From Porodaedalea pini (Eukaryota; Basidiomycota; Agaricomycetes; Hymenochaetales; Hymenochaetaceae): a DNA stretch of 64,000 nucleotides. Below, piece after piece: positions 11,533 through 63,530 of the stretch (position 1 is the stretch's first letter; each line of letters begins with the position of its first letter). The notes beneath the pieces were generated by a model. It saw nothing but the letters and a program-made list of their open reading frames with translations. It did not search any database and was not told the DNA's origin. Location of the stretch: assembly GCA_002794775.1 (NCBI GenBank), contig NBAY01000050.1:124001-188000 (forward strand), written 5' to 3'. Position numbers and translations under genes: made by a program.

Positions 11533-11934
11533 CCCACTGAATGTTCGAGCACGACATCGCAGAGTAGTCAGACTACAATATACGTGGCTCTTTAATCCAT
11601 ATGTCACGGAGTAAAAATGACGAAGATTCAACATTCTTGAGGATTAATATTGTAGCAGCGACCGACTGAGAAGCGGAGACTTAGCAATAATACTGACCTT
11701 TCGGGTACATACGGGTTTAGCGTGGGATGAGAGTCTGACAATCACGTGGCATAGAATCCGTGAGAACACAACCGGCTACCACTGGTACCAGCGTCGACAC
11801 GCTCAGTCTACTTACTTTCCTGGACGATAACTTGACTGGAACAGCCAGAGCAGCATCTCGAGGACGCACGTTGTCCGTGGGATACTGGGACTCATGCATC
11901 ATGAGTATTAAGGAGCCAGCTAACACGCACTTAG
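11533..11934. other. Upstream region of the dehydrogenase
   Basis: This stretch holds the 5' side of the dehydrogenase exon and then a spacer with no supported gene. An in-frame extension of the first exon runs to 11634. It could encode an extra 34-residue N-terminus rich in Arg and Ser (a possible targeting sequence) if an upstream Met is used. Confidence 0.35.
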
Positions 11935-20819: not shown

Positions 20820-23290
20820 AGGTTCAGCATGTACGTTCACGTCCCTAATTACTTTGATCATTCACATACTGACCTGCTCCTCCGTTCACTATGCAGTCCT
20901 TCCAATTTGAGTTCAACATATCCATCAGCCAGAGTGATTCGTGGAATCCGACCGCTTTCAGGAAGATCAACTGCAGGCTTCGTCTCACTCAGGTCTCGTC
21001 GACGGCGCTCCATAATCGGACATACAGTAGGGGGAAACGAGTTGAACTTCCTACGAAGATATGACGATCTGGGAAGACGGGAAAGACGGCATAAGTTTGT
21101 TCGACGCTTTCATTGACGAGTCTGGCGGCGTGAATGGTCGACACGTAACGCCGCTGCCGCTCCAGGACAACCGCATGCAGTTCCTCATGCAGGTGAAGAC
21201 GGTCACAAATGCGAGGGCGTCTGATTTAGAGATCGAGACCGATGTCGAGGATGGATGGAAACACCTGGAACTTGGCATGTGAGGCGCAAGCACAGCTATG
21301 AAGACGTCGAGCGCTTGTCAAGGTCATTGCCGGCGAGTTCGTCCTAAGTATGCAGTCTCACGATGCCTTCCTTATTCTTGAACACGGCCCTCGATATCGA
21401 TGCGCCTACTGTTTGGTGACTCATCACAACGTTGCACGCTTTGCCAATCCGCACACATTACCATCCTTCCCTCGATTCAGCCTCGCACGTTCCGTGCGTA
21501 TTTTAAACAGCATGGAGGAACTCGGCATCACTTACTGGGAGGTCTATCTTCGTTGGAAATACGTCGACCAAACACGAAACTCAGTAAGACAGAATTCTCA
21601 AGCTCCGTAGAACTACTTCGTCCACAGTTGCGCAGCCACATTCTTCGCGTTCTCTTCGCTTCTTTCATAGCTACTTGCGAACTCGATGAGCTTGGATCCA
21701 ACGCTTGCGAGCTTGTTCGGACTATTACTGTTCGGTCTCCCGACAAGGAGCTTCCACGCGACATAAACCGCTTACCTCCTATCCGCTCACGCCGCCGAGC
21801 GCCTCTTGCTCGAATATGTGCGCATCTAGGTCTTTCATGCCCATCCAGTGCTCCTCCGAAAAGGGTCATTTCTTGGGTGCAGGATTACCTCACTAGTCCC
21901 GCACCGATCAACTCCTTCGTGAGGCCGAGACTTGGCGCACGCATACATCATGCTACTAGTGTGCGTTGGCATGTGCGGTTTTATTCAGGAGACTTTGTTA
22001 GGACGGGGCACTGTATGGGCGAAGGGCGTGGAGGACGAAGTTGTACGTTAGAGCAAAGAGTAGGAACGCATCTCATCGGAAAATCGAGATGGTTCGTGCC
22101 TCATTCGGACGCGTATCAAAAGTAATTTGACTTACCACCTGGATTTCACACGTCGACGTCCACTATTGCGACTTCGCTCTCCTCTTTACCCTCGACGTAC
22201 GCGCTCTCTACCGTGTGCTCCTCGGCGAGCACATGCTCTTTGCTGTTTGATGGTCCAGCCAAAAAAAGCCAAGTTCCGCAGTTTGTCGGACACGAAATCG
22301 GGCGACTTGTCGTGCGGTTTGGCGATGGGGCTGCTGCGCCCTCTGCGAAGTGCCAGATGCTCAACTAGAACACTTTTAGCGCCGTCGGGTTCAGCAGCGG
22401 TGACGAGGGCCTCAGTCAGACCTTCCAGCTCGCACGCCGCCGCTCGCCCAGTCGTCCATCAGCAGTATAGAGAAAGAGATGAACCGCAAACTGAAGAAGG
22501 ATTTCTAGAAGGGGCCTCCGCCGAATGGTTTGGAACCGGCGTCTATTAGGAAGGGAGACATGAGCAAGGAGAGCCTTTTGGACGTGTCTGTGATCTACGA
22601 GGATGTATAAATAGGAGCGAGACTTTGTTCAAGGAGTTCAATTGGGCACTGGCGCGTACAATAAAGTTGTCAAGTCGATTGACCGTGTCTAATATTGGAC
22701 AAGTCGAGTTCAAGTCTCTACCGACGTCCCGCTCAGAGCCTTCCGCCACTTCTTCGTCCTTCTCTCAGCTCGTCCGCCGACCCCAGTGCTCTATCTGATC
22801 CGTACTCCGAGTCTACGCTTCTCCTTTTTGAGGAATTTGTACCCGCCCGAGTCTCGTAGCTCGCTCATTAGTCAAGGGAAAAAGCCAGCATCCATCCGGG
22901 CATCGTGTCACTCCTGTCACTGAAGTAGAGCCCGCCGAAGCAATGAAAACAGGTTGCGCCACTCAGCGGAAGGTCATACGCTGCACGAGCTGTGCCCTAG
23001 AGCCCGAGAGCGATAGAGACGGTTTAAACAATTGCAAGTCGGAGGGAACACGAATACGACGAACGTGTTATAGCCGGTTAGCTCTGCTATGGTGGGGAGG
23101 CGCGGTTTGTGCGTTCAGACGCCAGTACAAGACCCAAAATGCTCCACGTCGAGTCTGCAGTACTCTGGAGGCACGTCACAGACCATTTTCGGTTCAAGTC
23201 CTGTGAGGCCTGCAAACATTGTTAAGCCTGCTCATGCTCCACGAACTCCATCTAACCAACTTCAGTTCTTCTTTTTCTTGACTCACTTTG
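20820..23290 (+). repeat. Segmental duplication, copy 2
   Basis: This is the second copy of the block at 11935-14490, in direct orientation. It has the same landmarks: AGCATGTACGTTCACG near 20827, IWEDGKDGISLFDAF at 21064, LGSNACELVRTITVRS near 21700, VRFGDGAAAPSA near 22315, FLEGASAEWFGTGVY near 22505, KLSSRLTVSN near 22670 and VQDPKCSTSSLQYSGG near 23107. Substitutions and small deletions are scattered along its length: about 60 bp present near 12560-12600 of copy 1 are missing near 21415. It is also broken by stops. The source gene is not identified. Confidence 0.7.
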
Positions 23291-34617: not shown

Positions 34618-34619
34618 TA

Positions 34620-35468: not shown

Positions 35469-35470
35469 TA

Positions 35471-36671: not shown

Positions 36672-36673
36672 TA

Positions 36674-37511: not shown

Positions 37512-37625
37512 TAATAAAACTGACAGCTTTCAGGCTGTGTGATGTAAGATGCCCTTCAAGTGACTACACATTACAGTTGAAATTTATACTCCCTTCACAG
37601 TAATCCTTGGAAGCCAGACAAATTT

Positions 37626-46854: not shown

Positions 46855-46859
46855 AATGG

Positions 46860-47272
46860 TGTTAGGCGGGAGTCCGGGAGACGACTCGGACTGGGCAGGC
46901 CTCGGCTGACTGTTGTCTGGGACGTGCTATACTCGAGTGTAGACTCGGGACACGCTTACTCAGGCTAGGTCGTCGCGGAGGTAAGAGGATTAATACAAGT
47001 CTAAACTAATACAAGGGGGACGAGTCTCACCTAGGTCGTCGCGGAGGTAAGAGGAAAAGCAGAACAAGGAGTTCATGCGATTCCTGAGACCTTATATAGC
47101 GGCGACCGTGAGACTATATTACCTAACATTACATAACGAGTGGGAATGGAACGAATGAAGGCAGTGTGGGAATGATTGTGTAAGATGGGTAAATATAATG
47201 AAAAGGACGGATATAATAAAGGAAATGGTAAAAGGGAAAATAAAGGAAAAGGTGAAAGTTCAGGTTCTAACA
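46860..47272 (-). repeat. 3' LTR of the chromodomain element
   Basis: 413 bp, directly adjoining the pol stop codon at 47273. It differs from the 5' LTR at three places, each a CG in one copy and TG or CA in the other (near 46887, 46938 and 46976). Confidence 0.96.
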
Positions 47273-50200
47273 TTACCCCCCCTTCAAGGTTGGGCGTCCC
47301 GACCAACCATGATCGCGGTCGTCAGGCTCGGTGTCGATGAAGAGTGGACGGAGTCGTTGACGAGGGATGTCGAGTTTCCGAGGTGCACCGGGATGTTTGA
47401 GGTAGAACTCAGCGATCGCCTCCTTCGCGTTTTCGCCGAAGTCCGTCTCAGGCTGCCAAGTAGGTTCATTGTAGCCGACCCACTTGACAAGGTACTGTAG
47501 TTTCCCTCGGTGTAGACGTGAGTCTAAGACTTCCTCGAGTTCGTACTCCTCCTCGTTGTCGACGATGTCTGGCGGTGGCGGCGGCGGTTGCTTCTGGCTT
47601 TCAAAGGATGGTTCGACGGCGGGTTTCAACAGGGCTTCATTGAAGACAGGGTGGACCTTTTTCCATCGCTTCGGGAGTTTGAGCTTGTACGCGCTCGCTC
47701 CTACTTTGTCGACGACGTCAAAGGGGCCGTACCATTTGTCTGCGAGTTTCTTTGTCGGCGAGTCCGTGCTGATGTTTCGCCCGTCAAGGAAGACCTTGTC
47801 TCCAGCCCTGTACTCCACTGAAGCTCCTGCTGTCCGGTCATGGTAGCGCTTCATGTCCTCTGCTGCCTTGACTAGGTTGTCCTTAGCAACGCGATGAGTC
47901 TCCTTGATGTGCTTTGCGAATTCTTCCGCTGACATGTTAGCAGATGAGGTTCGCGTCGTGTCGAAGCTCAAGGGGTGACATCCTGTGTTCGCGTAGAAGG
48001 GGGACATCTTCGTTGCTGAGTGTTTGCGGTTGTTGTATGCGAACTCTGCGAGGGGGAGCCAGTCCTTCCAGTCCGATTGCCGATGGTTAACGAAGAGTCG
48101 AAGGTACTGTTCGAGCTCTTGGTTGACGCGTTCTGTTTGACCATCCGTCTGTGGATGGTACGCTGTCGACGGGTTGCCTTCAATGTGCAGAAGTTTGTAC
48201 AGCTCCTTCATCATCAACGCATTGAACTGCGTGCCTCGGTCGTGGATGATCTTCTTCGGCAGGCCATGGAGGCGGAAGACATGGTCGCGGTACAGCTGGG
48301 CCATGCCTTCTGCTGACAGCCTCGTCGTCGTCGGGATCGCGTGCATCTGCTTCGAGAACCTATCCACGAAGACGCAGATCGCGTTGTGTCCCTTGGAGTC
48401 CGGGAGCTCTCCGATTAGGTCGACCGTAACAATTTCCCAGGGTCCTTCAGGAACAGCGTTTGGATGGAGCGGTCTAGACCTCGACGTTCTTAAGGCTTTC
48501 GTCCGTTGACAACGGTCGCATCCTTGGACGTATGCTCGGACGTCGGAGAACATCGATGCCCACCAGAAATCGCGACGGACGAGCTCTACTGTCTTCGACG
48601 CTCCTGGATGACCAGCCAGAACCGAGTCATGGCACTCCCGCAACATGGCCTCCTTTATCGTCGATGGAACATACACCTTGCCTTTCATCCGCCACAACTC
48701 GTCGATCTCCACCAAACCCGTAGGCCTTTCCGACTCATCCTGCGCCCTCTGCGCTTCACCCACTCGTTCCACCACCTCGTCGCGCGATGTCCGCACCACC
48801 CCACGGTTCAACCACTTATCCTTGATGAAAACGACCCCATCGTTGTCATCCTTGCCCTGATCGTAGCCCGCCATGCGCGATAGCAGGTCGGCCTTGCCCA
48901 TCGTCTTGCCCGACTTGTGTTCAAGGTGGAAGTCGAATTCTTCAAGTTCGGTCCGCCAGCGAGCTTGGCGATAGCTCAGCTTCTGTGCCGATCTGAAGTA
49001 GGTGAGGTTGGCGTGGTCGGACCAGATTTCAATCTTGTGGCGAGCGCCAAGGAGGTATTGCCGCCACTCCTTGAGCGCCGAAACGATCGCGAGCATCTCC
49101 TTGTCGTAGATCTCGTAGTTTCGTTCCGCCGGTTCAAGTGCCTCTGACCTGTAGGTGATCACCCTCCACTTCCCTTCCTGCTTCTGCAACAACACACCAC
49201 CGAGCGCAAAGTTCGACGAGTCCGCTTCTACGCGGAAAGGGCCCTCGTCATTGGCGATGGCTAGGACTGGAGGTGAGCAGAGACGTTGTCTCAGCTCCTC
49301 GAACGCTTCCTGCTGTTCGGTCTCCCATACCCAGTCCTTCTTGCCCGTTAACGACGTCAACGGTCGGACCACCTTGCTGTAGTCCTTAATAAACCGTCTC
49401 AGCCAGTTTCCCATACCGAGGAACTGTTGCAGCTCCTTGAGGTTCCGTGGGACTGGCCAGTTCGCAATCGCTTCCGTCTTTGCCAGGTCAGCCCTGATCT
49501 CGCCATTGCCGATGATGTGGCCAAGGTATTTGACGACCTTGGCGTCAAACTCGCACTTCTCCGGCTTCAAGTACAGGCCATTTTCTCGGAGGATCTGGAG
49601 TACGCGCCTCGACGTGTCGATATGCTCCTCAATGGTTTCCGAGAGGATCAGGATGTCGTCGAGGTATACGATAATCAAGTTCGCGTAGATTAGGTCCTTA
49701 AAGATGTGGTTAACAAAGGCCTGGAACGTGGCCGGCGCGTTGCAAAGGCCAAAAAACATGACCGTCGGTTCGAAGAGGCCCATGTTCGTGCGAAACGCTG
49801 CCTTCCATTCGTCACCTTCGCGGATCCGGATATTGTAGTACCCCCAGCGAAGGTCAAGCTTAGTGATGTACTTCGCTTTCTTGACCTTGTCGACGAGTTC
49901 GTCAATGAGAGGGAGGGGATACTTGTTCTTGATCGTACCGTCATTGAGCTTACGGTAATCCTGGATGGGGCGTAGTGATTTGTCGGCCTTCTTTATGAAG
50001 AAGAAGGGCGACGCCATGGGCGATATCGACCGTCGAATGCGACCCGACTTCAGATTTTCATCAAGGAAGTCCTTGAGCGACTGCTGCTCAGTTGGCGTGA
50101 GCGGGTAAATCTTACAGTCGCTCGGTTTGAAGTCAGGCTTCAAGTCGATGACATGGTCCCAGGGCCGGTGTTCCGGCAGCTTCTCAAAACCTTTTTCGCT

Positions 50201-50890
50201 GAAAACGTCGGCGTAGTCGTTGAGGTATGCGGGCCAGGACGCCTTGTCCATTCGCATCTCACTCACCCTCCTCATCTGCTCCACCGCCTTTTTCACCCTG
50301 CCTAGGTCCTCCACCGTTTCCTTCTCAATCGCACATTCTTCTGGACAGCGGGTGAATTCGATTGAACCCGTTTTCCAGTCGACCTCCGGATTGTGACGTC
50401 GAAGCCAGTCGTACCCCAGGAAGATGTTTGACGACGCTAGGGACGTTACTGCGAGGACGATCCTCTCCCGGTGATGGCCGATCACGAGCTCGACGTCAAC
50501 ATACTCCTCGATTAGTCTGGCCTCATTGTGCGTGCCATCGGCGTTGAGCACCGCGAGGGGTCGAATGTAGCGTTTCGTTTCCAACCCGTACCTCTCGACG
50601 AATCTGACGTCGATGCAGGATCCTGTGCATCCCGAATCCACAAGGGCATGCGCATCTACTTCTCTCGCCTCACCCGCTATTTCATGCTCGACGGTCAGGA
50701 GAAGGTCCAGCTGGCGTCCACCAGTTCCTCTCATGAACAGTTGCTCATACCTTTCCTCTTTGTTCACACCGGTGGGGACTTCGTAATCGGGAAAACCATC
50801 GACGTCGTTTGCATCTATGTATTGTACAGACGGTTGGTTATATTTTAGCGAATCCGGATTTGAAGTCCCTTGTTCTTCTCGGTCAGTCAC
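47273..50890 (-). CDS. pol: Pol polyprotein of the chromodomain element
   Basis: An uninterrupted frame of about 1205 codons. In order it has an aspartic protease (LVDSGCTGSC, residues about 85), reverse transcriptase with the YLDD catalytic box (near 400), RNase H (VEADSSNFALGGVLL), an integrase zinc finger (HDSVLAGHPG then CDRCQRT), the integrase core with Asp in VTVDLIGELPD, Asp in IIHDRGTQF and Glu in DGQTERVNQ, and a C-terminal chromodomain (YLVKWVGYNEPTWQPETDF). The chromodomain is thought to steer integration toward histone-marked chromatin. The product is made as a Gag-Pol fusion if the slippage at 50917-50923 works. The frame has no stop and keeps all catalytic residues, so it may still be functional. 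TAA at 47273 abuts the LTR. Confidence 0.96.
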   Translation of the reverse strand: MTDREEQGTSNPDSLKYNQPSVQYIDANDVDGFPDYEVPTGVNKEERYEQLFMRGTGGRQLDLLLTVEHEIAGEAREVDAHALVDSGCTGSCIDVRFVERYGLETKRYIRPLAVLNADGTHNEARLIEEYVDVELVIGHHRERIVLAVTSLASSNIFLGYDWLRRHNPEVDWKTGSIEFTRCPEECAIEKETVEDLGRVKKAVEQMRRVSEMRMDKASWPAYLNDYADVFSEKGFEKLPEHRPWDHVIDLKPDFKPSDCKIYPLTPTEQQSLKDFLDENLKSGRIRRSISPMASPFFFIKKADKSLRPIQDYRKLNDGTIKNKYPLPLIDELVDKVKKAKYITKLDLRWGYYNIRIREGDEWKAAFRTNMGLFEPTVMFFGLCNAPATFQAFVNHIFKDLIYANLIIVYLDDILILSETIEEHIDTSRRVLQILRENGLYLKPEKCEFDAKVVKYLGHIIGNGEIRADLAKTEAIANWPVPRNLKELQQFLGMGNWLRRFIKDYSKVVRPLTSLTGKKDWVWETEQQEAFEELRQRLCSPPVLAIANDEGPFRVEADSSNFALGGVLLQKQEGKWRVITYRSEALEPAERNYEIYDKEMLAIVSALKEWRQYLLGARHKIEIWSDHANLTYFRSAQKLSYRQARWRTELEEFDFHLEHKSGKTMGKADLLSRMAGYDQGKDDNDGVVFIKDKWLNRGVVRTSRDEVVERVGEAQRAQDESERPTGLVEIDELWRMKGKVYVPSTIKEAMLRECHDSVLAGHPGASKTVELVRRDFWWASMFSDVRAYVQGCDRCQRTKALRTSRSRPLHPNAVPEGPWEIVTVDLIGELPDSKGHNAICVFVDRFSKQMHAIPTTTRLSAEGMAQLYRDHVFRLHGLPKKIIHDRGTQFNALMMKELYKLLHIEGNPSTAYHPQTDGQTERVNQELEQYLRLFVNHRQSDWKDWLPLAEFAYNNRKHSATKMSPFYANTGCHPLSFDTTRTSSANMSAEEFAKHIKETHRVAKDNLVKAAEDMKRYHDRTAGASVEYRAGDKVFLDGRNISTDSPTKKLADKWYGPFDVVDKVGASAYKLKLPKRWKKVHPVFNEALLKPAVEPSFESQKQPPPPPPDIVDNEEEYELEEVLDSRLHRGKLQYLVKWVGYNEPTWQPETDFGENAKEAIAEFYLKHPGAPRKLDIPRQRLRPLFIDTEPDDRDHGWSGRPTLKGG

Positions 50891-50898
50891 CCCGATGG

Positions 50899-51966
50899 CT
50901 ACGCCTGACCACTCGCAAAACCCTGCGAGTCAACGACCTCTTCGTCATTGTCTTCTTCCTCCACATAGTCCTCCACCGTCGATCTTCGAGTGTCCACGAC
51001 TTCCTCGAATGCCGACTCCTTCATCGCGCCGAGCTCGTCAGCGATGAGGCGGCGTTCGCCCGGTGCCATCAGTTCCAACATACGCTGGATGATCGGCTTC
51101 GCCTGCGGACATTTGTCCTTAAAGTGCCCCAGTCCGCCGCAAATCCAGCACGCGCGCTTTCGTTGCGCCTCATTCATCGAGACGTCCATTGGTTGGCCGG
51201 CACCTCCGAAAGTGACGCCCGTTGCGTCACGTTTATCGGCGTGTGGGGCTGCTACCTGTCGGCGTGCAGGAGGCCCTTGTTGAGGCGTCGGACGGGGCGT
51301 GAACGGCAATGTACGACCTCGTTGGATGGCGCGAATCTGCTGTTCACCCCGATCGATCTCAATGGCCTTCTTTTTCCATGCCTCATACGTTGTTGGCACG
51401 GGCGTCAACCTCAACACGCCATGGACCACCTCGATGTTCATCGCGCGTTGCAAGCGGTCACAAATGACGCCTTCGTCCTTCAGCTCCGCCGCCTTGATGA
51501 TCATGTCGAGGTCCTGGAAGAACTGGTCGGCAGAGAGGTCCTTCTGGATCTTGTCTCAGAACTTCTTCAGCGCCTTCTCCTTCCTGTTCGGATCATCGAA
51601 GGAGGCATCCAGTCGTTCCTGGAACTTGGCCCAGTCGTCCGTAAAGCTCACGACGCCATTCGTTGTGAATTCCTGGACGTAGTTTTGCGCCCACGTCGAC
51701 GCGTTGCCACCCTTGAGGTAAGAGAGGGCGACATAGATCTTGCTCGATGACGAGGGATACCTCGTGGGGTTCGCCGAGACAAAGAGTAGGACTTCGCGCT
51801 TGAAGTCGAGGTAGTCATCGCTGCCAGCGAATTCGCGTGGCCGGGCGATGTCAATCGAGGGAGCTGGAGCTTGGGCTGCAGGGGCGTTCGTTGCTGCTCG
51901 GGTGAAGGCGGCAGCTACAATCGCTGCGATCTCTTGTTGCTGCCTTTGAGTGAAACCTTCAGCCAT
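50899..51966 (-). pseudogene. gag: Gag of the chromodomain element with one in-frame stop
   Basis: The ATG at 51966 opens a frame of about 355 codons: MAEGFTQRQQQEIAAIV, the capsid region LSYLKGGNASTWAQNYV, and near the C-terminus a zinc knuckle CWICGGLGHFKDKC (CX2CX4HX4C). One TGA lies at about 51556-51558 (KKF-stop-DKIQKDL) with the same frame open on both sides, so a single base change separates it from an intact gene. In context TTC-TGA-GAC, a CGA Arg codon mutated at CpG is the simplest origin. The stop would block Gag and the Gag-Pol fusion, so this copy is probably not autonomous although pol is intact. Confidence 0.85.
50917..50923 (-). promoter_or_regulatory. Candidate -1 ribosomal frameshift site between gag and pol
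   Basis: On the minus strand the heptamer is G-GGT-TTT in the gag frame, which fits the X-XXY-YYZ rule for -1 slippage. It lies 16 bases before the gag TAG (50899-50901). Slipping by -1 enters the pol frame with no stop. I did not fold the downstream sequence for a stimulating structure. Confidence 0.6.
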
Positions 51967-52753
51967 CGCTGGTACGGGCGTATGTGTCAGGCGCTCAGGG
52001 GGTGTCGGCGGTGACGAGTCTCTACGGGGTGTACGATAGCCTCCTGGTTCGCTTGGGAGGACGACCGACGATGTCGAGACTGTCGGTGATGATGGTGCAC
52101 GGGGAGGTCGAGGTGCCCAACGAGTTCGCTCGCCGGAAGATGGGTCAGTCGAGTACCAGGCGTGCCTAGTGTCACTCCACCAGAGATTATGAGTGACGTG
52201 GTTTCTGTCGTCCGCTACGTACGATTGGCGTTCCGCGTCGTAGCGTGAAGAAGAGGGGAAAGCCCGCTGTTGTTCCTCAGTGAGATCTATCTTGACTACG
52301 TCGGGGGGGGAACAGGTAGGGGCTGGTTGTCCGGATGTATGTCACGCTGACGAAGGACAGGTTTGTCGGCGAGTTTGATGACCAAACGGAAGGAGGCGAC
52401 CGAGATCACAATTGACAACGACGTCGACGACTGTACACGGTGTGTTACCCACGTCCAGGTCAGATGGTTCCTCCACCAAAGAGAGAGACGGAGGGCCAGG
52501 GTGGGAGAGGGTTTCCTGATTAGGGTGTCAGGTCCTCCAAGGTCGAGTAGACGCCCGAATGCAGTAAGAGTCGGGGAAAGTCGGATTACTTAATACACGA
52601 ACGTTCGAAAACGCCCGGGCAGGGTTGAGGGTTGTCGTTCAGGGGGTTTACACGTCAAGTCCGTCGAGGGGAGCGCTCCTCTAGACCGAGTGAAGGCGAG
52701 TCGGCAGCGACGACGTACGCTGGGGATGAGCCTGGGTGGAGGTTCTGCTTTTA

Positions 52754-53166
52754 TGTTAGGCGGGAGTCCGGGAGACGACTTGGACTGGGCAGGCCTCGGC
52801 TGACTGTTGTCTGGGACGTGCTATACTCGAGCGTAGACTCGGGACACGCTTACTCAGGCTAGGTCGTCACGGAGGTAAGAGGATTAATACAAGTCTAAAC
52901 TAATACAAGGGGGACGAGTCTCACCTAGGTCGTCGCGGAGGTAAGAGGAAAAGCAGAACAAGGAGTTCATGCGATTCCTGAGACCTTATATAGCGGCGAC
53001 CGTGAGACTATATTACCTAACATTACATAACGAGTGGGAATGGAACGAATGAAGGCAGTGTGGGAATGATTGTGTAAGATGGGTAAATATAATGAAAAGG
53101 ACGGATATAATAAAGGAAATGGTAAAAGGGAAAATAAAGGAAAAGGTGAAAGTTCAGGTTCTAACA
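52754..53166 (-). repeat. 5' LTR of the chromodomain element
   Basis: 413 bp. A leader of 787 bases (51967-52753) separates it from the gag ATG. The target duplication AATGG follows at 53167-53171, where the old element's coding sequence resumes. Confidence 0.96.
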
Positions 53167-53171
53167 AATGG

Positions 53172-53785
53172 TTGATGTGGTGTTTCGCCAATTCTTGGAC
53201 TCCACAATATCAATATCAGGTCGAGAATTGTTGGCAACCTCGCAGGAGGTCAGATGAAAATGCAAGGACATGATGACGGCGAAGCAGAGTCCAATAAACC
53301 ATGACAAGGAAGGCACAGCCATGTACTCAGTAGGACCCAGGCCAGGGTCACCAGATGAAACAACGGAAAATGAACCAATCGCACCAGCAAGTGTTCCAAT
53401 CTGGATCATTGATGTATGGTTAGATGGAAAGATCGAGTTCAAAGGACTACTTGACACAGGAGCTTTGTTTATAGGGCTTTCTCGGGATGTATGGAAACAC
53501 CTAGGATTGCCAACTCTAAACAACAAACGAATCATTATCAAAACAGCAGACATGTCTAGGACCCAATCACTCAGACTAATACCACGACTCAGGATAGGAC
53601 TTGGAGGATTCTCGGTACTTGTACAAGCACAAGTCGTACACCCAGCACTGTTCGATATCTTACTCAGCCGACCATTCCTTGCACATTGCAAGGCTCGGCT
53701 TGTGGATATAGACATTGACGACCAGGTACTAGAACTAATCCACCTGGTAACAGAGGAAGATTTATCAGTTCCAACTCGAGAATGA
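53172..53785 (+). pseudogene. Protease region of the old Ty3/gypsy element
   Basis: The frame resumes after the chromodomain element with a Met/His-rich stretch and then a retropepsin-type protease. It shows WIIDVWLDGKIEFKGLLDTG, holding the catalytic DTG, followed by FIGLSRDVWKHLG and a second beta hairpin (LVQAQVVHPALFDILLSRPF). TGA at 53783-53785 and further stops follow before the copia insertion at 54202. The reverse transcriptase part resumes after 60175. Confidence 0.7.
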
Positions 53786-54196
53786 ACACGACGAAAGCAA
53801 CCAGCCGAGGATGAGGATTTTTGATAGTCAATGAATCGGTACAATATCGACGAGACAAACCAGAGGCGCAACCATGCTATACCACAGATACCCCGGAGTC
53901 AAACACAGTACATATTTCTTTTGACAGACAGTCTATCGAGATCACTGTCACAGAAAAAAGAGGAGGCGTAAAACCAAAACAAAATACGGAAAACAACAAA
54001 ACCCAAATAGACAATGCAACAGGACTATTCTCTATTAGTCACCCATACAACAATGAATCCCTAATTCCTCAAATAAGTCAAACTCACTGAACGACTCAAC
54101 CCTTCTTCAAATACAAGAAGGTCGCTGATCGTATAAAGCCGGTACCAACCACACTCCCCAAAGAATACCAAGTCACCAGGACACAGCACCCCGACC
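53786..54196 (+). other. Decayed protease-to-RT linker of the old element
   Basis: The stretch between the protease and the copia element belongs to the old element but carries several stops (for example TGA and TAG near 53820-53827). A plus frame of 89 codons from 53821 is rich in Asn, Thr and Gln. No catalytic motif is visible. Confidence 0.5.
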
Positions 54197-54201
54197 CTCT
54201 A

Positions 54202-54481
54202 TTTTTGTATCTGTGTGCAATATATCTCAGTCGTAGTAGTAGTACAGGACTCATGTATGTATACCTGTGTGCAATATATCTACATAATGGTCATAAGAAT
54301 AGGAAGATAGAACTGTGCATCGGAAAGCTCACCTCAGTCATAGTAGTAGTACAGGACTGAGGTGGCTATTAGGGACTGTCAGTACTTTATATGCGCTGGT
54401 CGGGTTTGGAATAACATGAAGTGGCTGGCATAGGATCTACGGATACAGAAACAGAGCGATGTCGATCTTCTACTCTCAACA
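54202..54481 (-). repeat. 3' LTR of the copia element
   Basis: 280 bp. It differs from the 5' LTR at five sites, all CG against TG or CA: base 5, the TCAGTCG site near 54232, ATGCGC near 54394, CTACGG near 54440 and TGTCGAT near 54463. Confidence 0.96.
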
Positions 54482-54571
54482 CTCCCCTCATCGCAATGTT
54501 TATGGACTGAAGTAAAAAGAAATGAAAGGAAATAGTAAAGGAAAATTGAAGGAGCAGTGAATGTGTGTGAA

Positions 54572-57500
54572 TCAAGATAGTTTGAGGAGTTTGATGCATT
54601 TCTCATGCAAAGTGGGCGACAGCAGTTTCATGAGTATATCCACTGGGTTGTTGATACCTTCAACATGAGAAAGCCATATGTGCCCCTTCTCTACCTCATC
54701 ATGAATATGGTGCACCAGGATATCGATATGTTTGGTCTTGGAAAGATATACTGGGTTTTCTGTCATCCATATAGCCACCTGGTTATCAACATGTATCACA
54801 GAAGGCTGATCATTGAATGGTCGATTGATCTCTTGAAAGAGATGGCGGAACCAGATCGCTTCATGTGCACAGAATGACACTGCCAGGTACTCAGCTTCAG
54901 CGGTAGATCTTGCTACAACTGTCTGTTTTCGTGATTTCCATGCAATAGGTCCATTATTGACCATGAAGACATGACCAGCCACCGACTTTCTGTCGGATAG
55001 GTTTCCAGCCCAGTCAGAGTCCGAATATGCAGTTGGGTGTTGTTCTCCCCCTGGGCAGTATACAATCCCAAGGTCCTTAGTGCCACTGAGGTATCGTAGA
55101 ACTCTCTTAGCTGCTTCCCAGTGAATTTGCTTGGGTTTGTGCATGTAGCGAGCGAGTATGTTGACTGCGAAAGCAATGTCAATACGGAGCACATTTGCGA
55201 TCCAGAGTAGTTCACCAATGAGCTGCGCATAGGGCCATGGTGGACTGTCAGGTGGCTGGGAGGTGTCCTTGTTGAATAGAGTGAGCATGTCCCTTGCCAT
55301 TGGTGTCCGGTACGTCGAGGCATGCTTAAGATTGTACTTTTCCAGTGCGCGTTCTATCTTGAGCATTATGGACAGTTTGATGTAGCCTTCTGACTCATTA
55401 TAGAACACAGTCATACCCAAGAGATTAGCTCGTTGTTGTGCATCCTTTTCTTTGAATTGGAAATGCGAGCCTATCTCGGACTTGAACCTGTCTGCTTCAG
55501 TGTCACGTTTGACAGACGTTGAAATGCAGTATGCTGTGCAATCATCAACGTGCATTGCAATTATCAACTCCCCCTCAGCGTCTGCTCGGGCATAGACACT
55601 TGGAGCAGAAATGCAGTGTTTGTAGCCGAGAAGTGCGAGTTTGCTGTTGAAGTGCATAGACCATGCTTGAGCACCTTGGCGAAGACCATAGAGGGCATGT
55701 TTAAGAAGACAGCAGGGTTTATTGAATCTGGGGAGAGAGAAACCAGATGGATAGTCGACAATTAGATCAGGTTCAGACAGTGGGCTGTGTAGATATGTGG
55801 AACTAATGTCAATTGTGACGAGACAGCCATGTGGGTGAGAGCTAAGGGAAGTGATGACTTTCGCAGCAATGAAGTCACCGGAGGTGGCAAAAGTCTCATC
55901 GAACTCAAGGCCAGGGACCTGTGAGTCACCACGAGCAACCCAGCATGCCCGGTATTTGAGAGAGCTATCAGCCTCCTCCTTAAGGTTAAAAACCCACATG
56001 CCGTGAATGACATGCAGATCGGCAGGATGTTTGATCACTTCCCAGCAACCCATCTCCATGAGCTTGGTAATTTCATATACCATAGCTTTGTGCCACTCGA
56101 TTGAGTGTCGAGAGCGAAGTGCCTCTGTGGAGCTTCATGGAAGGGTTATTCCTGCTATCACACGTCGTTCAGATAACAGATTGACATTTTGTTGTTGTAG
56201 ACGTTCGGAACGGCGGAGAAGTATAGGCGTGTTTGAATGTGGTGCGGGAGCATCTTCGAATCTGTGTTCGGTCTTGGCACTGGGATCTGAGATGGATGAA
56301 GTCTTAGATTCGTCAAATATGATGTCATGAGAGTAGTGAATCTTTCTCATATCTCCGTCAATTAGGCGGTAAGCAGCATCGTCGCGATAGCCGACAAGAA
56401 TAAGCTTTGTGGATTTTGGATCGAGTTTCTTCTGCTTTTCGGGAGCAATTCGCATGTATGCTGTCGATCTGAAGATCCTTATATGATTGACAGCAGGCTT
56501 GCGACCATATAGAACCTCAAGTGGTGATTTATTAGCGATGGCAGATGTACCGCACCTGTTATGGACATATGCAAAGGTGTCGTACACTTTAGCCCAATAA
56601 ATGTCACCGAGGTTTGCGAATTTGAGCATCGCCCACACCGCATCAGATCCAGTCCAGTTCATGTGCTCAGCCCGGCTGTTCATTTTGTGGTGATATGGCA
56701 CAGTTAGGTGATGTTGTATACCATTATCCTGGTTAAAGGTCTCCATAGCGTTGTTTACATACTCAGTTCCGTTGTCGGTGTGGAGAGCCTTCACAGAGAT
56801 TGAGTGTTGTGTGCAGAACTCCAAGCACAAAGCCCTCCAGTGAGCAAGGACGTTGTCAGCTTCTTTGGATTGAATTGCATGGCACCAGACGAAGTTTGAG
56901 AATTCATCAATGAACTTTAGAGAGATGGTAGCCCCAGAGAAAGACGCGTGACCAATGAACTCGAGATCAGAGTGGCTTATGTCACCTGGATGCATGGCAC
57001 GCAGCTTGCGGGATGCAGCAGTCGTGGCCATCATCTTGGAGAGAATACACGATTCACACTTAGCAGGTTCTTTGTCTGGTCATATCGCTAGTCCCATCAC
57101 GATTCCACATTGCTCGAGCTCTATTACTCGTTGTTCGCCAAGATGGGCTAGGTGTTGGTGCCATATGATTAACGGCTTAACTATGTCTTTATGAGTTGTA
57201 ATGATGTGTATGTTCTCCTTTTGAGCTTTCATCTTGATCACCCACTGATTTTGTGTCACAAACGCTTCTCCAAAGATGACCTTATCTCTTGAAAGTTGGC
57301 AAAAATCTTTTTCAAAGATGATTTTGACTCCGCGAGCAGTGAGTCTGGCCAGTGATACAAGATTGTGAGTGAGTTCCGGGACATAAAGGACCCCGTCCAT
57401 TGGGATATTGTAGGACGTTTCACCATGTATGAAACAAACAAGCACCAAACCCTTTCCGACAGCGTAGACTGAGTATTTTTTCCTCACTGTCTGGATTTTG

Positions 57501-58603
57501 ATTGGGCTAATGTCTGTGTAGGATGTGAAACATGACCTGTCATTGGTCATATGTGACGACACTCCAGAATTGAGCAACCAGCTGCCAGCTTCAATCATTT
57601 TGAGGTTGGTAACAACAAGAGCCTTTTGCCACCCATATGGTTCCATGCCGTCAGGAATCTCTTCAATAGTCGCTTGTGGCTGGGCAGCAACAACTGCACA
57701 TCGAGTACACTGGTTGTCTATCACTTGTATCTGAGTGGAGAGGTTTGCTCTTTCCTTATCTAACATGTCTTCAGGGACTCTGTAATATGGAGGCTGTCTG
57801 TGTACTGCACCTCCCCCTGGTGCCCAGCAATTTTGGATTGTGTGAACCCCTCGCTTGCAGTTGGGGCATAGCACACCTTCTCCTTGAGGTGTTGGGGTGT
57901 TTCTCTCAGTGCGTCCTTTGCTATTGAATCTTGATGGTCCATGCATCTGAGATTGCAGTGCAGCTTCTGACCTCTTTGGAGCAGTGTAGCCTCTCGCCTC
58001 CCTCAGCTCCAGCATTGAGATGAGTTCTTCCAGATCGCTTATAGTGTCTCCATAAAGTGTAAGTTGCCTCCATTGTTCGTGATCTTCGAGCAAATTCAAA
58101 ATAATGGTCTGCCACTCAGAAGTCCGGAGAGCCTCTCCAGTATTGAGGTACTGAGAGCGCAGTTGACGAAGTTCAACAATATGGTCCTTCAGAGACTCCC
58201 CAGGGCGAATGCGCTTCGAGTCTAGTCTGGCCTTTGCAGTTGTCTGGGCCAATACAGAGCGCTTTCTGAAATGTGTGTCTATTGACTTCCATAGGTCAGC
58301 TGCAGTATTCCCATCATTTGCAATTTCACCATAGAGTGTATGGTCCATGTTCAGGGCTAATTGCTCAACTGCCAGACTGTCGACATTTTTCCAGGTTTCA
58401 AATTCTTCGGCGTTGTCTTCTGATGGACATGGGATAGTTCTGAGAATGTGGCCAACCCATTTGTGACTAGTCATGATGACTTGCTGAATTTTCTTCCACG
58501 CATAGAAGTTGGACCCATTCGGCTTAAGGTGGTTTTTGTGGCTGAACTCCTTTACAATGAACTCTTCAGGTCCCTTCCGCCTCTGGGATTTCGACGAAGA
58601 CAT
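54572..58603 (-). pseudogene. Copia Gag-Pol polyprotein with two TGA stops
   Basis: A single frame of 1344 codons from the ATG at 58603 (MSSSKSQRRKGPEEF). It has a Gag of the UBN2 type (EFETWKNVDSLAVEQLALN), a Cys/His knuckle-like CPNCKRGVHTIQNC, and a protease whose expected DSGAS reads NSGVS. An integrase zinc region (HQHLAHLGEQRV then CESC) precedes the integrase core with Asp in GDISHSDL, Asp in LHTDNGTEY and Glu in SRAEHMN. Reverse transcriptase has the catalytic HVDD box, and RNase H has YSDSDWAGNLSDRKS. TGA stops lie at about 57080 (after MGLAI) and 56135 (after GITLP). The frame is the same on all sides, so only these stops break it. With the Asp-to-Asn change in the protease, the copy is dead. 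Confidence 0.9.
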
Positions 58604-58621
58604 GGCCGACCCTTCTCTGGG

Positions 58622-59453
58622 TGTAGGGGTGCAGACTCTTCTAATCCGAAGGGCGATTCGGGCTACGGCTTGTGATCGACCCAAGGGGGACTGCGGTGAC
58701 TTGGTATACCAAGAGGGACAACCTAAGTAGAGCAAGGTTCGAGATATGAAGACTCGGCGATACAGATACATGCGGGATTCTGGTTGGACCAAGACTCGGG
58801 CAGGTAGAATCAGCACTTGTGGCAGTGGCCGAGGGCATTCGGTGATTGGGTGATGGAGTTCTGAGAGTCAGTGACAGGGTCGGTGTATACTATTTTCAGA
58901 ATGAGAGTCGGGCGAGTAGTGCATAGTAATGCATGTAGTAGATTGCTGTCTGGAGGTGGAGAGGGAACTGTCTGTCTCTGTACTGTTCTCGTATCTCCCT
59001 ATCTCTCCCTATCTGTACAAACTACTGCGAATTTATACTAAACTGAAGCAGAGAAAGCAGTGCAAGACTTGGCTGAGTCTGTGTGAATGGATGTGAAAGT
59101 GAGTTGGCTATTGGTCTGCGCACATCACGCAGCTGATTGTCATGGAGTGATGTTGGAGTCCCCAACCTGCTCTTTCATCTCCCACCACTGCACACCCATA
59201 TTCCACATCCTTGTCCTACTCGCCTAATTCCTTCCACCTGTCCCCACGAGAGTTGGTCGTCCATGTGCTGATTGAGTTCATGCGACATCCCTCCGTCCGA
59301 TCGTGTCCATACCAAGAATTATAATGAAGAGTCGGCCGCCAATTATGAATGAATAAATGGTAAAGTTTGGCAGCCGGTAAAGGGATTCAAAGGAGTAGTG
59401 TAAGTGAGGGGAGAAAGACTCGGCCAGCGTGTAGGCGATGGTTAATCGCTACA
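58622..59453 (-). repeat. Solo LTR of the old gypsy family inserted in the copia leader
   Basis: 832 bp from TGTAG to CTACA in minus orientation, matching 42118-42955 along its whole length. A 4-bp duplication TGGG flanks it (58618-58621 and 59454-59457). No internal gypsy sequence is present, so it arose by recombination between two LTRs of a full insertion. Its 3' border lies only 19 bases before the copia Gag ATG, so it replaces the normal leader immediately upstream of Gag. Confidence 0.85.
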
Positions 59454-59880
59454 TGGGTGCCCGAGCAAACAGTGTTCCAAGGTCTGCTTGTGTGCTCGGA
59501 GTCTGAGATTGATGTGGGCTTTCAGTTCCGGATTGATGACTCGTACTGCAGTTTGGTGTGGCTGACAGGTCTAAGTCAAGACATGGATTGAGTGCCATAG
59601 TAGGGGTAGGAGACGGCGGTTGTATTTCAGGAGTGGACAAATGAGATTGGGATGGTGTGATAGTGGGTAAAGGGCTGGTTGAATTGCTATCATTGGGCAG
59701 TGCCACTCCATTGTTGGTAAGCTCAGACGGTGTTCGGTTTTCTGCAGCTTTTGTGTTCGACTGCCACGGGTCCTGATCAAAAGGTTCGAGAGGTGTATTT
59801 GTCCGTAATCTCTCTCCTCTTGTTGACATAAATGTGGCAGCTAATCGTTACGCTGTTGGGTTCTAGATTGCACGAGCAAG

Positions 59881-59890
59881 GCTCATAACC
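59881..59890 (-). promoter_or_regulatory. Copia primer-binding site
   Basis: The minus strand reads GGTTATGAGC directly after the 5' LTR, in the position and form usual for copia elements, whose sites are related to GGTATCAGAGC and pair with an initiator Met tRNA region. Confidence 0.6.
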
Positions 59891-60170
59891 TTTTCGTATC
59901 TGTGTGCAATATATCTCAGTCATAGTAGTAGTACAGGACTCATGTATGTATACCTGTGTGCAATATATCTACATAATGGTCATAAGAATAGGAAGATAGA
60001 ACTGTGCATCGGAAAGCTCACCTCAGTCATAGTAGTAGTACAGGACTGAGGTGGCTATTAGGGACTGTCAGTACTTTATATGTGCTGGTCGGGTTTGGAA
60101 TAACATGAAGTGGCTGGCATAGGATCTATGGATACAGAAACAGAGCGATGTTGATCTTCTACTCTCAACA
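59891..60170 (-). repeat. 5' LTR of the copia element
   Basis: 280 bp, identical to the 3' LTR except at five CpG-type sites. The CTCTA target duplication follows at 60171-60175 and the old gypsy reading frame resumes right after it. Confidence 0.96.
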
Positions 60171-60175
60171 CTCTA

Positions 60176-63100
60176 AATGACCTTCCAGAATTACCAACCC
60201 ATCCGCCACCATTCTCACCTGGGAAACGACTCACCCAGGAATGATATGATGAAATGGACATAGATCTGGCCAGATTCCTACTCCCTGAAGAAAAGGATCT
60301 CACGTGGTGGGTTATTCGGACACAGGAAATGGTGTTCGCATGGGACGAAACAGAAAAGGGCGCACTCGACTATGATTACTTTGCTCCAGTTCTTATCCCA
60401 ACGATCGAGCATATTCCATGGGTACTGAAAATATTCCCATCCCACTGGGGATATTTGACAGTGTCATCACAATCATCAAAGACAAAATCATGTCCAGCAT
60501 TTATGAACCATCAAACTCGTTGTATCGATCCAGATGGTTCTGTGTAGTAAAGAAGGACGGAAAGTCACTGAGAATAGTCCACGATCTTCAACCACTAAAT
60601 GCAGTCACGATATGAGATCCATCGGTGCTGTATCCAACCGAACACATCACCGAGTCTTTTGGTGGCCGATCCTGTTATACAACCTTGGACTTATTTGTAG
60701 TGTTTGACCAAAGGAAACTCGCCATACAAAGTAGGGACATAACGACATTCCAGACGCCACTAGGAGCATTCCGACTCACATCAATTCCCATGGGGTATAC
60801 GAACTCCCAGAAAATCATGCATGCTGATGTCACATTCATCCTGAAGGATGAAATCCCGGACATGGTGTTCCCATACATTGATGATGTACCTATAAAAGGG
60901 CTGGCCACGTGATATGAGTTACAGGACGGATCATACAAGACCATCCCAGAAAATTCAGGAATCCGCCGATTCATATAGGAACACTTAAATGACGTCAACC
61001 GAGTCCTCCAAAGATTCAAAGTAGTTAGGGCGACTCTGTCTGGGAAAAAGTTGGTACTTGCTGCACCCAAAGCCGTGATAGTCGGCCACACCTGCAACTA
61101 CTCAAGACGAGTCCCAGATGGAGCACAAGTCCAAAAAGTCATCGACTGGCCTCCTTGTGAAGACATTACCAATGTTCGATCATTCCTCAGAACTGCAGGA
61201 GTCCTCAGGCATTTTATCAACAACTTTGCCCAATTGGCATATGATCTGAACTGACTCACCGGAAAAGATGTCCCCTTCTCATTCGGAAAACTCGAACAGC
61301 GATCGATGGACCAACTTAAGAAGGCAGTCACCGTGTCTGGAGCCATCAGGCCGATCAACTACAAATGTGGGAGACCGGTCCACCTCTGCATAGATTCGTC
61401 AATTCGAGGATATGGAGCGATTCTCTTACAGATCAGAGAAAATGGAGAACAATTCCCAGCCCGTTTTATGTCTGCAACATGGAACGAGAGGGAACAGAAC
61501 TACTCACAGCCAAAAGTAGAACCGTTCGGCCTCATGAGGGCACTCCACGACGCACAGATCTACCTAATAGGACTGGACCACTTCTACATTGAAGTTGATG
61601 CGAAGTACATTAAAGGCATGATCAACAACCCAGATATCCAGCCAAATGCGACAATCAACCAGTGGATCGCTGGAATCTTATTGTTCCACTTCACGATTAT
61701 CCATGTACCAGGCACTCAGCATACAGGCCCAGACAGACTCAGTTGGCAAAAGCGAGCAGACACCGACCCTCCAGATGACGAAAACTACAAAGAATGGATC
61801 AACAATCAGTATGCCTTCATATTCGTAGCATACACTGGAGACATTCCTCCCGCTGCAGACCCTCCCACCATTCCTCAGACAGCTGCAGCAGAATCGGCCA
61901 ATCAAGAGTTGATAAAAATCAAGGAGTTTCTCAATGACCCAAAGAAACAAGAAGACATGTCAGACAACGAATTTCAACACTTCGTAACAAAGGCAACTCA
62001 GTTTTTCATCGCAGATGGACAACTTTGGAGGAAATGATACTCAGGACCGCACCAACTCGTACTTGCACGAGATCGCCGATTCTCAGTCATGCAGTCAGCA
62101 CACAATGACCTGGGACACAAAGGATTCTTTTCAGTACAACTACAAATCCACGATCGATTTTGGTGGCCCATGATGAGTTCCGACATACATTGGTTCCTGA
62201 AGACATGTCACTTGTGCCAGACTCGGCAATTCACTCACATACAAATTCCACCAAACGTCCCAACACCAGCACCACTATTCACCAGGGTACACATAGATGT
62301 GATGCTCATGCCCAAATCAGGGGGATTCAGGTATATTGTCCAGGCAAGAGACTCTCTCACAGGCTACCCGGAATTCTGACTCTTATGTGCTGACAACTCG
62401 AGATTGATCGCCAACTTCATCTTCTAGGACATCATATGTCGATGGGGTTATGTACACGAGATCATTTCAGACAATGGTCCATCATTTGACAGCAAAGTAA
62501 TCAGGATGTTGGCAAGATACGAAGTCCACAATATCCAAATCTCCCCCTATAACTTGAGAGCAAACAGAATTGTAGAGCAATGCCACAGGGACCTTAGGGA
62601 AACACTGATGAAACTTGCCAGGAACGACAAAACTCGATGGTCACAACATGCATACCATGCCATATGGGCGGAGAGGATCACGATTCAGAAAGCAATGGGA
62701 TATTCGCCATACTACATGGTCCATGGAGTCCAGCCGATCCTTCCATTTGACTTGGCCAAACAAACATACATGTCACCAGTATATACATTGAAGGTATCCC
62801 AGTCAGAACTACTCACAGCATGAGCAAGGGCACTCCAGTGTTGACCAGAAGACTTGAAACAAGTACACTCGGCAGTCATGCGTGCTTGCTTCAAATCAAT
62901 CCAGCAATTCGAAAAACACTACCAAAACACAATCCGAGACTACGACTTTGGCCCTGGAGCCCTGGTTCTGGTTCGAAACTCACAAATCAACACAGAACTA
63001 AGCCGGAAAGCCAAACCCAAATACCTCGGACCAATGGTAGTTGTTTGCCGAACAACTGGAGGATCATACATTCTCGCAGAACTCACAGGTGCAGTCTCAG

Positions 63101-63312
63101 CACTACGATATGCAGCCTTCAGAGTTATCCCGTACCACCCCCAAGCAAACATATTGACCCCAGTCACCCAGATAGTGGAGCAAACCAACTCAGAACTCGA
63201 CGATCTCACTAACAAACATTCAAAAATCAAAGGGGAGGAGCTCGGTGCCGAGGATCAGCCACAACCAACAGAAATCCTTGACACCGACTCTGGAACCGAA
63301 TCTGAATCATGA
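60176..63312 (+). pseudogene. Reverse transcriptase, RNase H and integrase of the old Ty3/gypsy element
   Basis: The frame resumes after the copia element. It shows PLGIFDSVITIIKDKI and FCVVKKDGKSLRIVHDLQPL, then the RT core with FQTPLGAFRLTSIPMG and the YIDD box (VFPYIDDVPIKG). RNase H follows with CIDSSIRGYGAILLQ, then an integrase zinc region (HNDLGHKGFFS and CHLCQTR) and a core with IDVMLMP, ISDNGPSFDS and an expected Glu in ANRIVEQCHRD. The C-terminus is acidic (DSGTESES) and ends at 63312. At least nine in-frame stops are visible, most of them TGA at positions where Arg is normal in this family (for example AVTI-stop-DPSV and LWRK-stop-YSG), and two are TAG. The frame itself is otherwise continuous, so decay is by base changes rather than by indels. 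Confidence 0.8.
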
Positions 63313-63530
63313 TACCCCATTATTCTCTTTGATATCTGTACTCATTCTGTTTCCTTTCACACAACAAACCCCCACTCTCAAACTTCGAAACTGCGAAATC
63401 CACAAAAAACAGTACCCTACTGAGCCTGGAAGGAAAAGCCGAGTCTTATACTTCCGTTGTAAAGCACAGTGTAATGTGGTACCAACCATAGACTAAATTC
63501 CCTTAATAAATAACAAACACCAAAACTACC

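What the first reader, a model, noticed from the sequence alone, without database searches (positions are those of the whole stretch)
46860..60170. All eight LTR-LTR mismatches in two independent retrotransposons are CpG transitions
I aligned the 280-bp copia LTRs (54202-54481, 59891-60170) and the 413-bp chromodomain-element LTRs (46860-47272, 52754-53166) base by base. They differ at five and three sites. At every one of the eight sites one copy has CG and the other TG or CA. No transversion, no non-CpG transition and no indel was found. LTRs are identical at insertion, so this records what has mutated since. It points to cytosine methylation at CpG followed by deamination, not to Neurospora-type RIP (mainly CpA) or neutral drift. 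The two elements lie in one methylated-looking island inside the old gypsy.
Basis: partly seen in the sequence, partly recalled or inferred. Interest (0 to 1): 0.75.

Follow-up and report, generated by a model that had tools for sequence, protein, structure and literature searches.

The report
CpG decay scars in fungal retrotransposons
In this basidiomycete fungus, nearly every base that has changed in sampled jumping elements since they landed is a C lost at a CG pair, the expected scar of DNA methylation; it is a clear, well-measured case of a known process rather than a new one.

Summary
The copia LTRs differ at 5 sites and the chromodomain-gypsy LTRs at 3; all 8 are CpG transitions, and both elements have exact 5-bp target duplications. 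It extends beyond the window. In 43 LTR pairs with matching target duplications, from three families, 63 of 70 mismatches are CpG transitions, about 73 times the non-CpG rate per site (bootstrap 36-244). Of 59 that can be polarised, 58 run CG to TG/CA, 29 on each strand. The same LTR columns give a control: differences shared by both LTRs of an element, so made before insertion, are CpG in only 14 of 59 (Fisher P 1.6e-10). A two-copy duplication in the window shows a 1.3-fold CpG excess. DNMT5-like and DNMT1-like genes are present; the best protein matches are to Hymenochaetales. Best explanation: CpG methylation of inserted copies, then deamination, which is already known for basidiomycete transposons. 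The 'methylated island inside the old gypsy' is only partly right: the young gypsy is not CpG-depleted, and an old gypsy relic was found on one side only. No methylation data could be examined.

The parts
46855..46859 (.). target-site duplication AATGG, left
   Evidence: flanks; identical to 53167-53171
46860..47272 (-). 413-bp LTR of chromodomain Ty3/gypsy element (3' LTR in element sense)
   Evidence: TG...CA ends
47273..50890 (-). gypsy pol open frame, 1205 aa: protease, RT, RNase H, integrase, chromodomain
   Evidence: Pfam: RVT_1, RT_RNaseH, Integrase_H2C2, Chromo over cut-off; rve (30.3 of 32.6 bits) just under
52754..53166 (-). 413-bp LTR of chromodomain element; differs from its partner at 3 CpG sites (46887/52781, 46938/52832, 46975/52869)
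53167..53171 (.). target-site duplication AATGG, right
54197..54201 (.). target-site duplication CTCTA, left
54202..54481 (-). 280-bp LTR of copia element
54572..58816 (-). copia coding part in three frames: RVT_2 (54572-56083), integrase (56135-57034), Retrotran_gag_2 and Pol_BBD (57080-58816)
59891..60170 (-). 280-bp LTR of copia element; differs from its partner at 5 CpG sites (54206/59895, 54233/59922, 54394/60083, 54440/60129, 54463/60152)
60171..60175 (.). target-site duplication CTCTA, right
60538..63075 (+). relic of an old, distantly related gypsy pol, in CpG-depleted DNA (o/e 0.62 over 60171-64000)
   Evidence: tblastn, 21% identity, E 3.6e-29; composition
11934..14389 (.). comparison sequence: one copy of a low-copy duplication (other copy 20822-23203), CpG o/e 1.15
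   Evidence: one search tested 11934-13507
20822..23203 (.). second copy of the comparison duplication

Best explanation
After insertion, copies of these LTR retrotransposons are methylated at CpG by the host's DNMT1/DNMT5-type machinery. 5-methylcytosine then deaminates to thymine over time, on either strand. The LTRs are identical when the element lands, so they record this process almost alone: CpG becomes TpG or CpA, and hardly anything else has had time to happen. Differences between elements that both LTRs share were made before insertion (by reverse transcription, or earlier in the lineage) and show a mostly non-CpG spectrum. Shown here: the CpG-dominated spectrum, its direction and strand symmetry, its presence in three families, its weakness among pre-insertion changes and in one low-copy duplication, and the presence of methyltransferase genes. 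Inferred: that the CpGs are methylated, and that deamination is spontaneous.
For:: 63 of 70 mismatches in 43 pairs with matching target duplications are CpG transitions (63 of 1762 CpG positions against 7 of 14294 others; ratio 73, bootstrap 36-244; Fisher P 7e-53); 43 of 43 insertions have distinct flanks; 58 of 59 polarisable CpG events are C>T or G>A, 29 each; the base before the mutated C is T 20, A 17, G 13, C 13 against 1170, 941, 591, 700 available; in the 29 gypsy elements with 413-bp LTRs, within-pair changes are 40 of 47 CpG, changes fixed in both LTRs 14 of 59 (8 of 46 if private to one element); over the 5.5-kb interior the two closest of 15 copies differ from the window copy by 75 CpG of 81 and 57 CpG of 64 substitutions; comparison duplication 108 CpG of 401 substitutions, 1.3-fold per site, CpG o/e kept at 1.15; three PF00145 loci; one matches PDB 7r76 at E 1e-92 (recalled as Cryptococcus DNMT5; the entry label reads Rad8); the other two match DNMT1; one of them has an RFD domain. 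[quoted passage not shown]
Against: No methylation data were available. The 73-fold excess is larger than the roughly tenfold CpG excess of vertebrates (recalled), so spontaneous deamination may not be the whole story. In 13 of 16 full-length gypsy copies (3 divergent ones left out) the LTR CpG count does not track private internal CpG changes (Spearman 0.19, P 0.52) and runs against private internal non-CpG changes (-0.58, P 0.04); four copies with no LTR CpG mismatch carry 15 to 30 private internal CpG changes. Inheritance from the source copy or LTR-to-LTR conversion could cause this; neither was tested. Private internal changes are CpG in 266 of 405, only about 8-fold per site, and pre-insertion changes are not free of CpG events (14 of 59). 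Of 47 pairs, 4 lacked a clean target duplication and were left out: 14 CpG, 4 other transitions, 3 transversions, 4 indels.
Confidence: 0.85

Rival explanations
1. An active, RIP-like mutator that targets CpG in repeats during the sexual cycle, as discussed for the anther smut Microbotryum, rather than slow deamination.
For: The excess is very large (73-fold); CpG signatures in basidiomycete transposons have been put down to a RIP-like process (PMC4352252, abstract and passages).
Against: No heavily mutated pair: 0 to 5 CpG changes per pair, variance/mean 1.4 in the gypsy family, though the sample favours young copies. Strand runs within a copy are not significant: 20 same against 13 different, P 0.13. 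No clear TpCpG preference. The window's gypsy, one of a large family, keeps CpG o/e 1.13. The pattern cannot by itself separate rare weak RIP from deamination.
Confidence: 0.1
2. Neurospora-type RIP preferring CpA.
For: Four of the five non-CpG transitions in LTR pairs sit at CpA-type positions, and the three non-CpG changes that run C>T or G>A are all of that type, on 1470 CpA, 2241 CpT and 1904 CpC positions: a weak hint from three events.
Against: 63 CpG changes against 4 CpA-type ones, of which one runs A>G. Internal private C>T changes are CpA 29, CpT 28, CpC 22 on 663, 677, 767 positions, no marked CpA preference.
Confidence: 0.01
3. The pattern is an artefact of base composition, assembly error or mis-paired LTRs.
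For: CpG positions are fairly common in the gypsy LTR (48 of 413).
Against: The 43 pairs counted have matching 5-bp target duplications and distinct flanks; one of them (L008/L006) spans 18 kb and so presumably holds a later insertion. The rate is normalised by CpG positions. In the same columns the pre-insertion changes are mostly not CpG. Events are directional (58 of 59).
Confidence: 0.02
4. CpG is hypermutable everywhere in this genome, methylated or not.
For: CpG-to-TpG biased polymorphism between isolates has been reported in Heterobasidion parviporum (PMC5870257, abstract and passages).
Against: The left 34 kb of the window keeps CpG o/e 1.00, and the two-copy duplication keeps 1.15 with a 1.3-fold CpG excess at 20-25% divergence. 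Only one such comparison was available, it is much older than the LTR pairs, and it was not shown to be a gene.
Confidence: 0.02

Closest known systems
CpG methylation and CpG-biased change in Agaricomycotina (Agaricus bisporus, Marasmius oreades, Heterobasidion parviporum)
   Same: CpG methylation concentrated in repeats (PMC7473861, PMC9674265, passages); CpG-to-TpG biased SNPs (PMC5870257, passages). As an echo, stops inside RVT_2 frames here are 38 TGA, 11 TAG, 4 TAA (hand count from the table), as CGA-to-TGA changes would give; original codons not checked.
   Different: Here the changes are read from LTR pairs of single insertions, which separates changes made after insertion from earlier ones.
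CpG signature in Microbotryum and rust transposons with a Masc2/DNMT1-class enzyme (PMC4352252, abstract and passages)
   Same: CpG-type C-to-T signature; DNMT1-class genes; those authors found no RID class in basidiomycetes.
   Different: No clear TpCpG preference here; a DNMT5-like gene is present in addition; mainly lightly mutated copies were sampled.
CpG decay of simian endogenous retroviruses (PMC8775094, passages)
   Same: Most C/T and G/A transitions at CpG, about half TpG and half CpA, put down to methylation and deamination; LTR dating affected.
   Different: Vertebrate host; transposon families and methylation machinery differ.
Dim2-linked mitotic C-to-T mutation in Zymoseptoria (PMC8016269, passages)
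   Same: Methyltransferase-linked mutation in transposons outside meiosis.
   Different: CpA context and a different enzyme class.

Membership tests
CpG methylation-deamination decay of transposons | C-to-T changes concentrated at CpG, in both strand readings | tested here: met
   63 of 70; 29 C>T and 29 G>A of 59 polarisable
CpG methylation-deamination decay of transposons | arises after insertion, in genomic DNA | tested here: met
   40 of 47 within pairs against 14 of 59 fixed before insertion
CpG methylation-deamination decay of transposons | non-repeat DNA spared | tested here: inconclusive
   one low-copy duplication (1.3-fold) and CpG o/e 1.00 over 34 kb agree, but it is a single, much older comparison
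CpG methylation-deamination decay of transposons | host encodes CpG methyltransferases | tested here: met
   DNMT5-like and two DNMT1-like loci, one with RFD
CpG methylation-deamination decay of transposons | elements carry 5mC at CpG | not testable with these tools
   no methylation reads
Neurospora-type RIP | CpA preference | tested here: not met
   a weak hint from three LTR events is noted under rivals
Neurospora-type RIP | dense mutation of duplicated copies | tested here: not met
   0 to 5 CpG changes per pair; sample favours young copies
Neurospora-type RIP | RID-class methyltransferase | tested here: inconclusive
   three PF00145 loci, matched as DNMT5 or DNMT1, but no RID profile was used
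Microbotryum-type TpCpG process | TpCpG preference | tested here: not met
   T-preceded 20 of 63 with 1170 of 3402 NCG available; internal 98 of 266 with 334 of 978 available
Ty3/gypsy chromovirus (46860-53166) | RT, RNase H, integrase and chromodomain between TG...CA LTRs with 5-bp target duplication | tested here: met
   rve just under its Pfam cut-off, Integrase_H2C2 over it
Ty1/copia element (54202-60170) | RVT_2, integrase upstream of RT, copia gag, LTRs with 5-bp target duplication | tested here: met
   frames split in three

The most novel reading that the evidence does not exclude
An enzyme-driven CpG mutator acts weakly but continually on inserted repeats in this Agaricomycete lineage (methyltransferase-promoted deamination, or poor repair of T:G mismatches in methylated repeats), giving a CpG excess of about 70-fold, well above spontaneous deamination.
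Probability: 0.12. Interest if true: 0.65.

Novelty: new member of a known kind. Interest (0 to 1): 0.35.

Why it matters
LTR pairs show where a fungus has probably methylated its DNA without any methylation data, and here they separate two mutation processes on the same sequence: changes made before insertion and changes made in place. In practice, LTR ages in this genome would be inflated about ninefold if CpG sites are kept (divergence 0.44% over all sites against 0.049% over non-CpG sites in the 43 pairs), so LTR-based activity dates in other CpG-methylating fungi deserve a check. The size of the excess is a testable number for whether deamination alone suffices.

Tried and rejected
Missing T:G repair as a cause of the large excess: the UDG profile PF03167 found nothing, but the ung model TIGR00628 found uracil-glycosylase pieces at C9. 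The empty PF03167 search therefore cannot be read as absence of a thymine glycosylase. HhH-GPD gave three places, not assigned to a gene. The idea was dropped.

CpG count as a per-element clock: no correlation between LTR and internal private counts in 13 copies. Not used for dating, beyond noting that CpG loss in the window copia (5 of 16 copy-sites) exceeds that in the gypsy (3 of 48).

RNA-templated asymmetry in pre-insertion changes: T>C 16 against A>G 2 in element sense, P 0.01, but 11 against 2, P 0.07, without one element. Kept as a lead only.

A third copia family (L078) gave no LTR pair in the stretch fetched and was left. Horns et al. 2012 on basidiomycete RIP is not held; I saw it only as a citation in PMC4352252. 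Literature searches that listed no paper on LTR-pair spectra in Agaricomycetes, as far as titles and abstract starts show. They cover open-licence full text only, so no claim is made that it is unpublished.
Full report
Observation. The two LTR pairs were recut and compared base by base. The 280-bp copia LTRs differ at 5 sites and the 413-bp chromodomain-gypsy LTRs at 3. All eight differences are CG in one copy and TG or CA in the other. Both elements are flanked by exact 5-bp target duplications (CTCTA, AATGG), so each pair belongs to one insertion. CpG positions make up 16 of 280 and 48 of 413 sites; all eight changes landing there by position alone has probability about 1e-9.

The elements. 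Both read on the minus strand. The gypsy frame (47273-50890) carries RT, RNase H, integrase and a chromodomain; the copia frames, split in three, carry RVT_2, integrase and copia gag. The genome holds 53.3 Mb in 201 contigs. The window's CHAT/TPR protein has its best matches in Phellopilus nigrolimitatus (51-54% identity), with Coniferiporia, Sanghuangporus and Fomitiporia among the 120 rows listed of 1272; Phellopilus belongs to Hymenochaetales, Agaricomycetes. I take the organism to be an Agaricomycete, probably of that order (inference).

Wider test. LTR pairs came from three families: the gypsy family (hits), the window's copia family, and a second copia family whose 215-bp LTR was found in L079. 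The set is a sample that favours young copies. A further 19 pairs were fetched blind from the 150 RNase H places scored, and all 19 proved to be pairs with target duplications. The eight pairs were picked from some fifteen visible, partly because their two LTRs scored differently, which affects the number of changes but not their type. Of 47 pairs, 43 have a matching 5-bp target duplication (34 gypsy, 2 copia A, 7 copia B), and these 43 have distinct flanks; one copia A pair spans 18 kb (one search places). In the 43, 63 of 70 mismatches are CpG transitions, 5 are other transitions (4 at CpA-type, 1 at CpC-type positions), 2 are transversions, and none are indels. By family the CpG count is 46 of 53, 10 of 10 and 7 of 7. 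Per site this is 63 of 1762 CpG positions against 7 of 14294 others, a ratio of 73 (bootstrap over pairs 36 to 244; Fisher P 7e-53). Without the two window pairs it is 55 of 62. The 4 pairs dropped hold 14 CpG transitions, 4 other transitions, 3 transversions and 4 indels. In five further 10-kb stretches (L035-L039) only one good LTR was found; the fetched DNA did not cover both sides, so I do not call them solo LTRs.

Direction and context. Using the states in other family members, 58 of 59 polarisable CpG events run from CG to TG or CA, 29 on each strand; one runs the other way and four are ties. For the window's copia family only one other element was available for this. The base before the mutated C is T 20, A 17, G 13, C 13, close to what is available. 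The three non-CpG changes that run C>T or G>A are all at CpA-type positions, a weak hint of CpA from three events. In the interior of 13 gypsy copies (3 divergent copies left out), private CpG changes are 128 C>T and 138 G>A, without clear TpCpG preference, and private non-CpG C>T changes fall on CpA, CpT and CpC as 29, 28 and 22 of 663, 677 and 767 positions.

Internal control. Differences fixed in both LTRs of an element were made before it inserted. In the 29 gypsy elements with 413-bp LTRs these are CpG in 14 of 59 variant states (8 of 46 if private to one element), against 40 of 47 within pairs (Fisher P 1.6e-10 and 2.6e-11). Over all 34 gypsy elements the fixed states are 20 CpG of 108 substitutions plus 51 indel states; in the 2 copia A elements 6 of 36, in the 7 copia B elements 1 of 8. 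The CpG rule therefore belongs mainly to life in the genome, not to the sequence itself or to reverse transcription. The interior agrees for close relatives: the two nearest of 15 copies differ from the window copy by 75 CpG of 81 and 57 CpG of 64 substitutions, while over all 15 the share is 1746 of 3371.

Low-copy comparison. The duplication 11934-14389 / 20822-23203 keeps CpG o/e 1.15. Its part 11934-13507 has one other full-length match in the genome plus 13 short ones. It shows 108 CpG transitions of 401 substitutions, 108 of 497 CpG positions against 293 of 1810 others, a ratio of 1.3. By contrast the multicopy repeat at 34618-35471 / 36672-37514, about 10% diverged, shows 21 of 73, 21 of 30 CpG positions against 52 of 813, a ratio near 11. 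The duplication is older than the LTR pairs and was not shown to be a gene, so this comparison is supportive, not exact.

Machinery. PF00145 matches lie at three places. The C42 frame matches PDB 7r76 at E 1e-92; I recall these entries as Cryptococcus DNMT5, though the label reads Rad8. The C6 and C2 frames match DNMT1, and an RFD match lies about 2.4 kb from the C6 one on the same strand. A 2026 review gives DNMT1-RFD and DNMT5 as the core 5mC maintenance toolkit of Basidiomycota (PMC13297926, passages). Among stop codons inside RVT_2 frames (table, counted by hand) TGA is 38, TAG 11, TAA 4, as CGA-to-TGA changes would give; the original codons were not checked.

Mechanism. The best reading is CpG methylation of inserted copies followed by deamination. 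Against an active RIP-like burst speak the low counts (0 to 5 per pair, variance/mean 1.4 in the gypsy family) and the lack of significant strand runs within copies (20 same, 13 different, P 0.13). These do not exclude a weak active process, and the size of the excess, well above the vertebrate figure I recall, leaves room for one. A result that does not fit neatly: in 13 copies the LTR CpG count does not track private internal CpG changes (Spearman 0.19, P 0.52) and falls with private non-CpG changes (-0.58, P 0.04); four copies without LTR CpG mismatches have 15 to 30 private internal CpG changes. Private internal changes as a whole are CpG in 266 of 405, about 8-fold per site, a mixture of changes before and after insertion. 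Inheritance from the source copy and LTR-LTR conversion are both possible.

The island claim. The left 34 kb has CpG o/e 1.00. The copia and the flanks at 42.0-46.9 and 60.2-64.0 kb have 0.58 to 0.68, but the gypsy has 1.13. An old gypsy relic was found only on the right (60538-63075, 21% identity); on the left an old copia fragment was seen at 42761-42991. So the neighbourhood does look long-methylated, but the young gypsy has lost few of its CpGs.

What is known. CpG signatures in basidiomycete transposons, and methylation with deamination as their cause, are in print (PMC4352252, abstract and passages), as are CpG-biased polymorphism in Heterobasidion parviporum (PMC5870257, abstract and passages), CpG methylation almost restricted to transposable elements in Agaricus bisporus (PMC7473861, abstract and passages) and higher CpG methylation of repeats in Marasmius oreades (PMC9674265, passages). 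What this case adds is the split into before and after insertion, and the number.

Noticed in passing
34618-35471 and 36672-37514: An 854-bp near-palindromic repeat with TACAGCC...GGCTGTA ends, probably a palindromic MITE with a TA target site (inference). In one search the 40 places scored (524 first-look candidates) are 97-100% identical over essentially the full length, and each also matches on the opposite strand at the same place. CpG o/e 0.27-0.34.
   Followed up: partly
gypsy LTRs, 29 elements with 413-bp LTRs: Changes private to one element but fixed in both LTRs lean to T>C over A>G in element sense (16 to 2, P 0.01; 11 to 2, P 0.07 without one element), as RNA-templated errors might.
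   Followed up: partly
C6 and C2 of the genome (L018, L019): Two DNMT1-like loci; an RFD match was found only near the C6 one.
   Followed up: partly
37626-40628: Intact 1000-aa TPR-CHAT frame, with many relatives listed in Hymenochaetales genomes.
   Followed up: no
11934-14389 and 20822-23203: Two-copy duplication about 9 kb apart; the one long frame tested in it (13050-13892) has no Pfam match; short matches to C84 and C99.
   Followed up: partly
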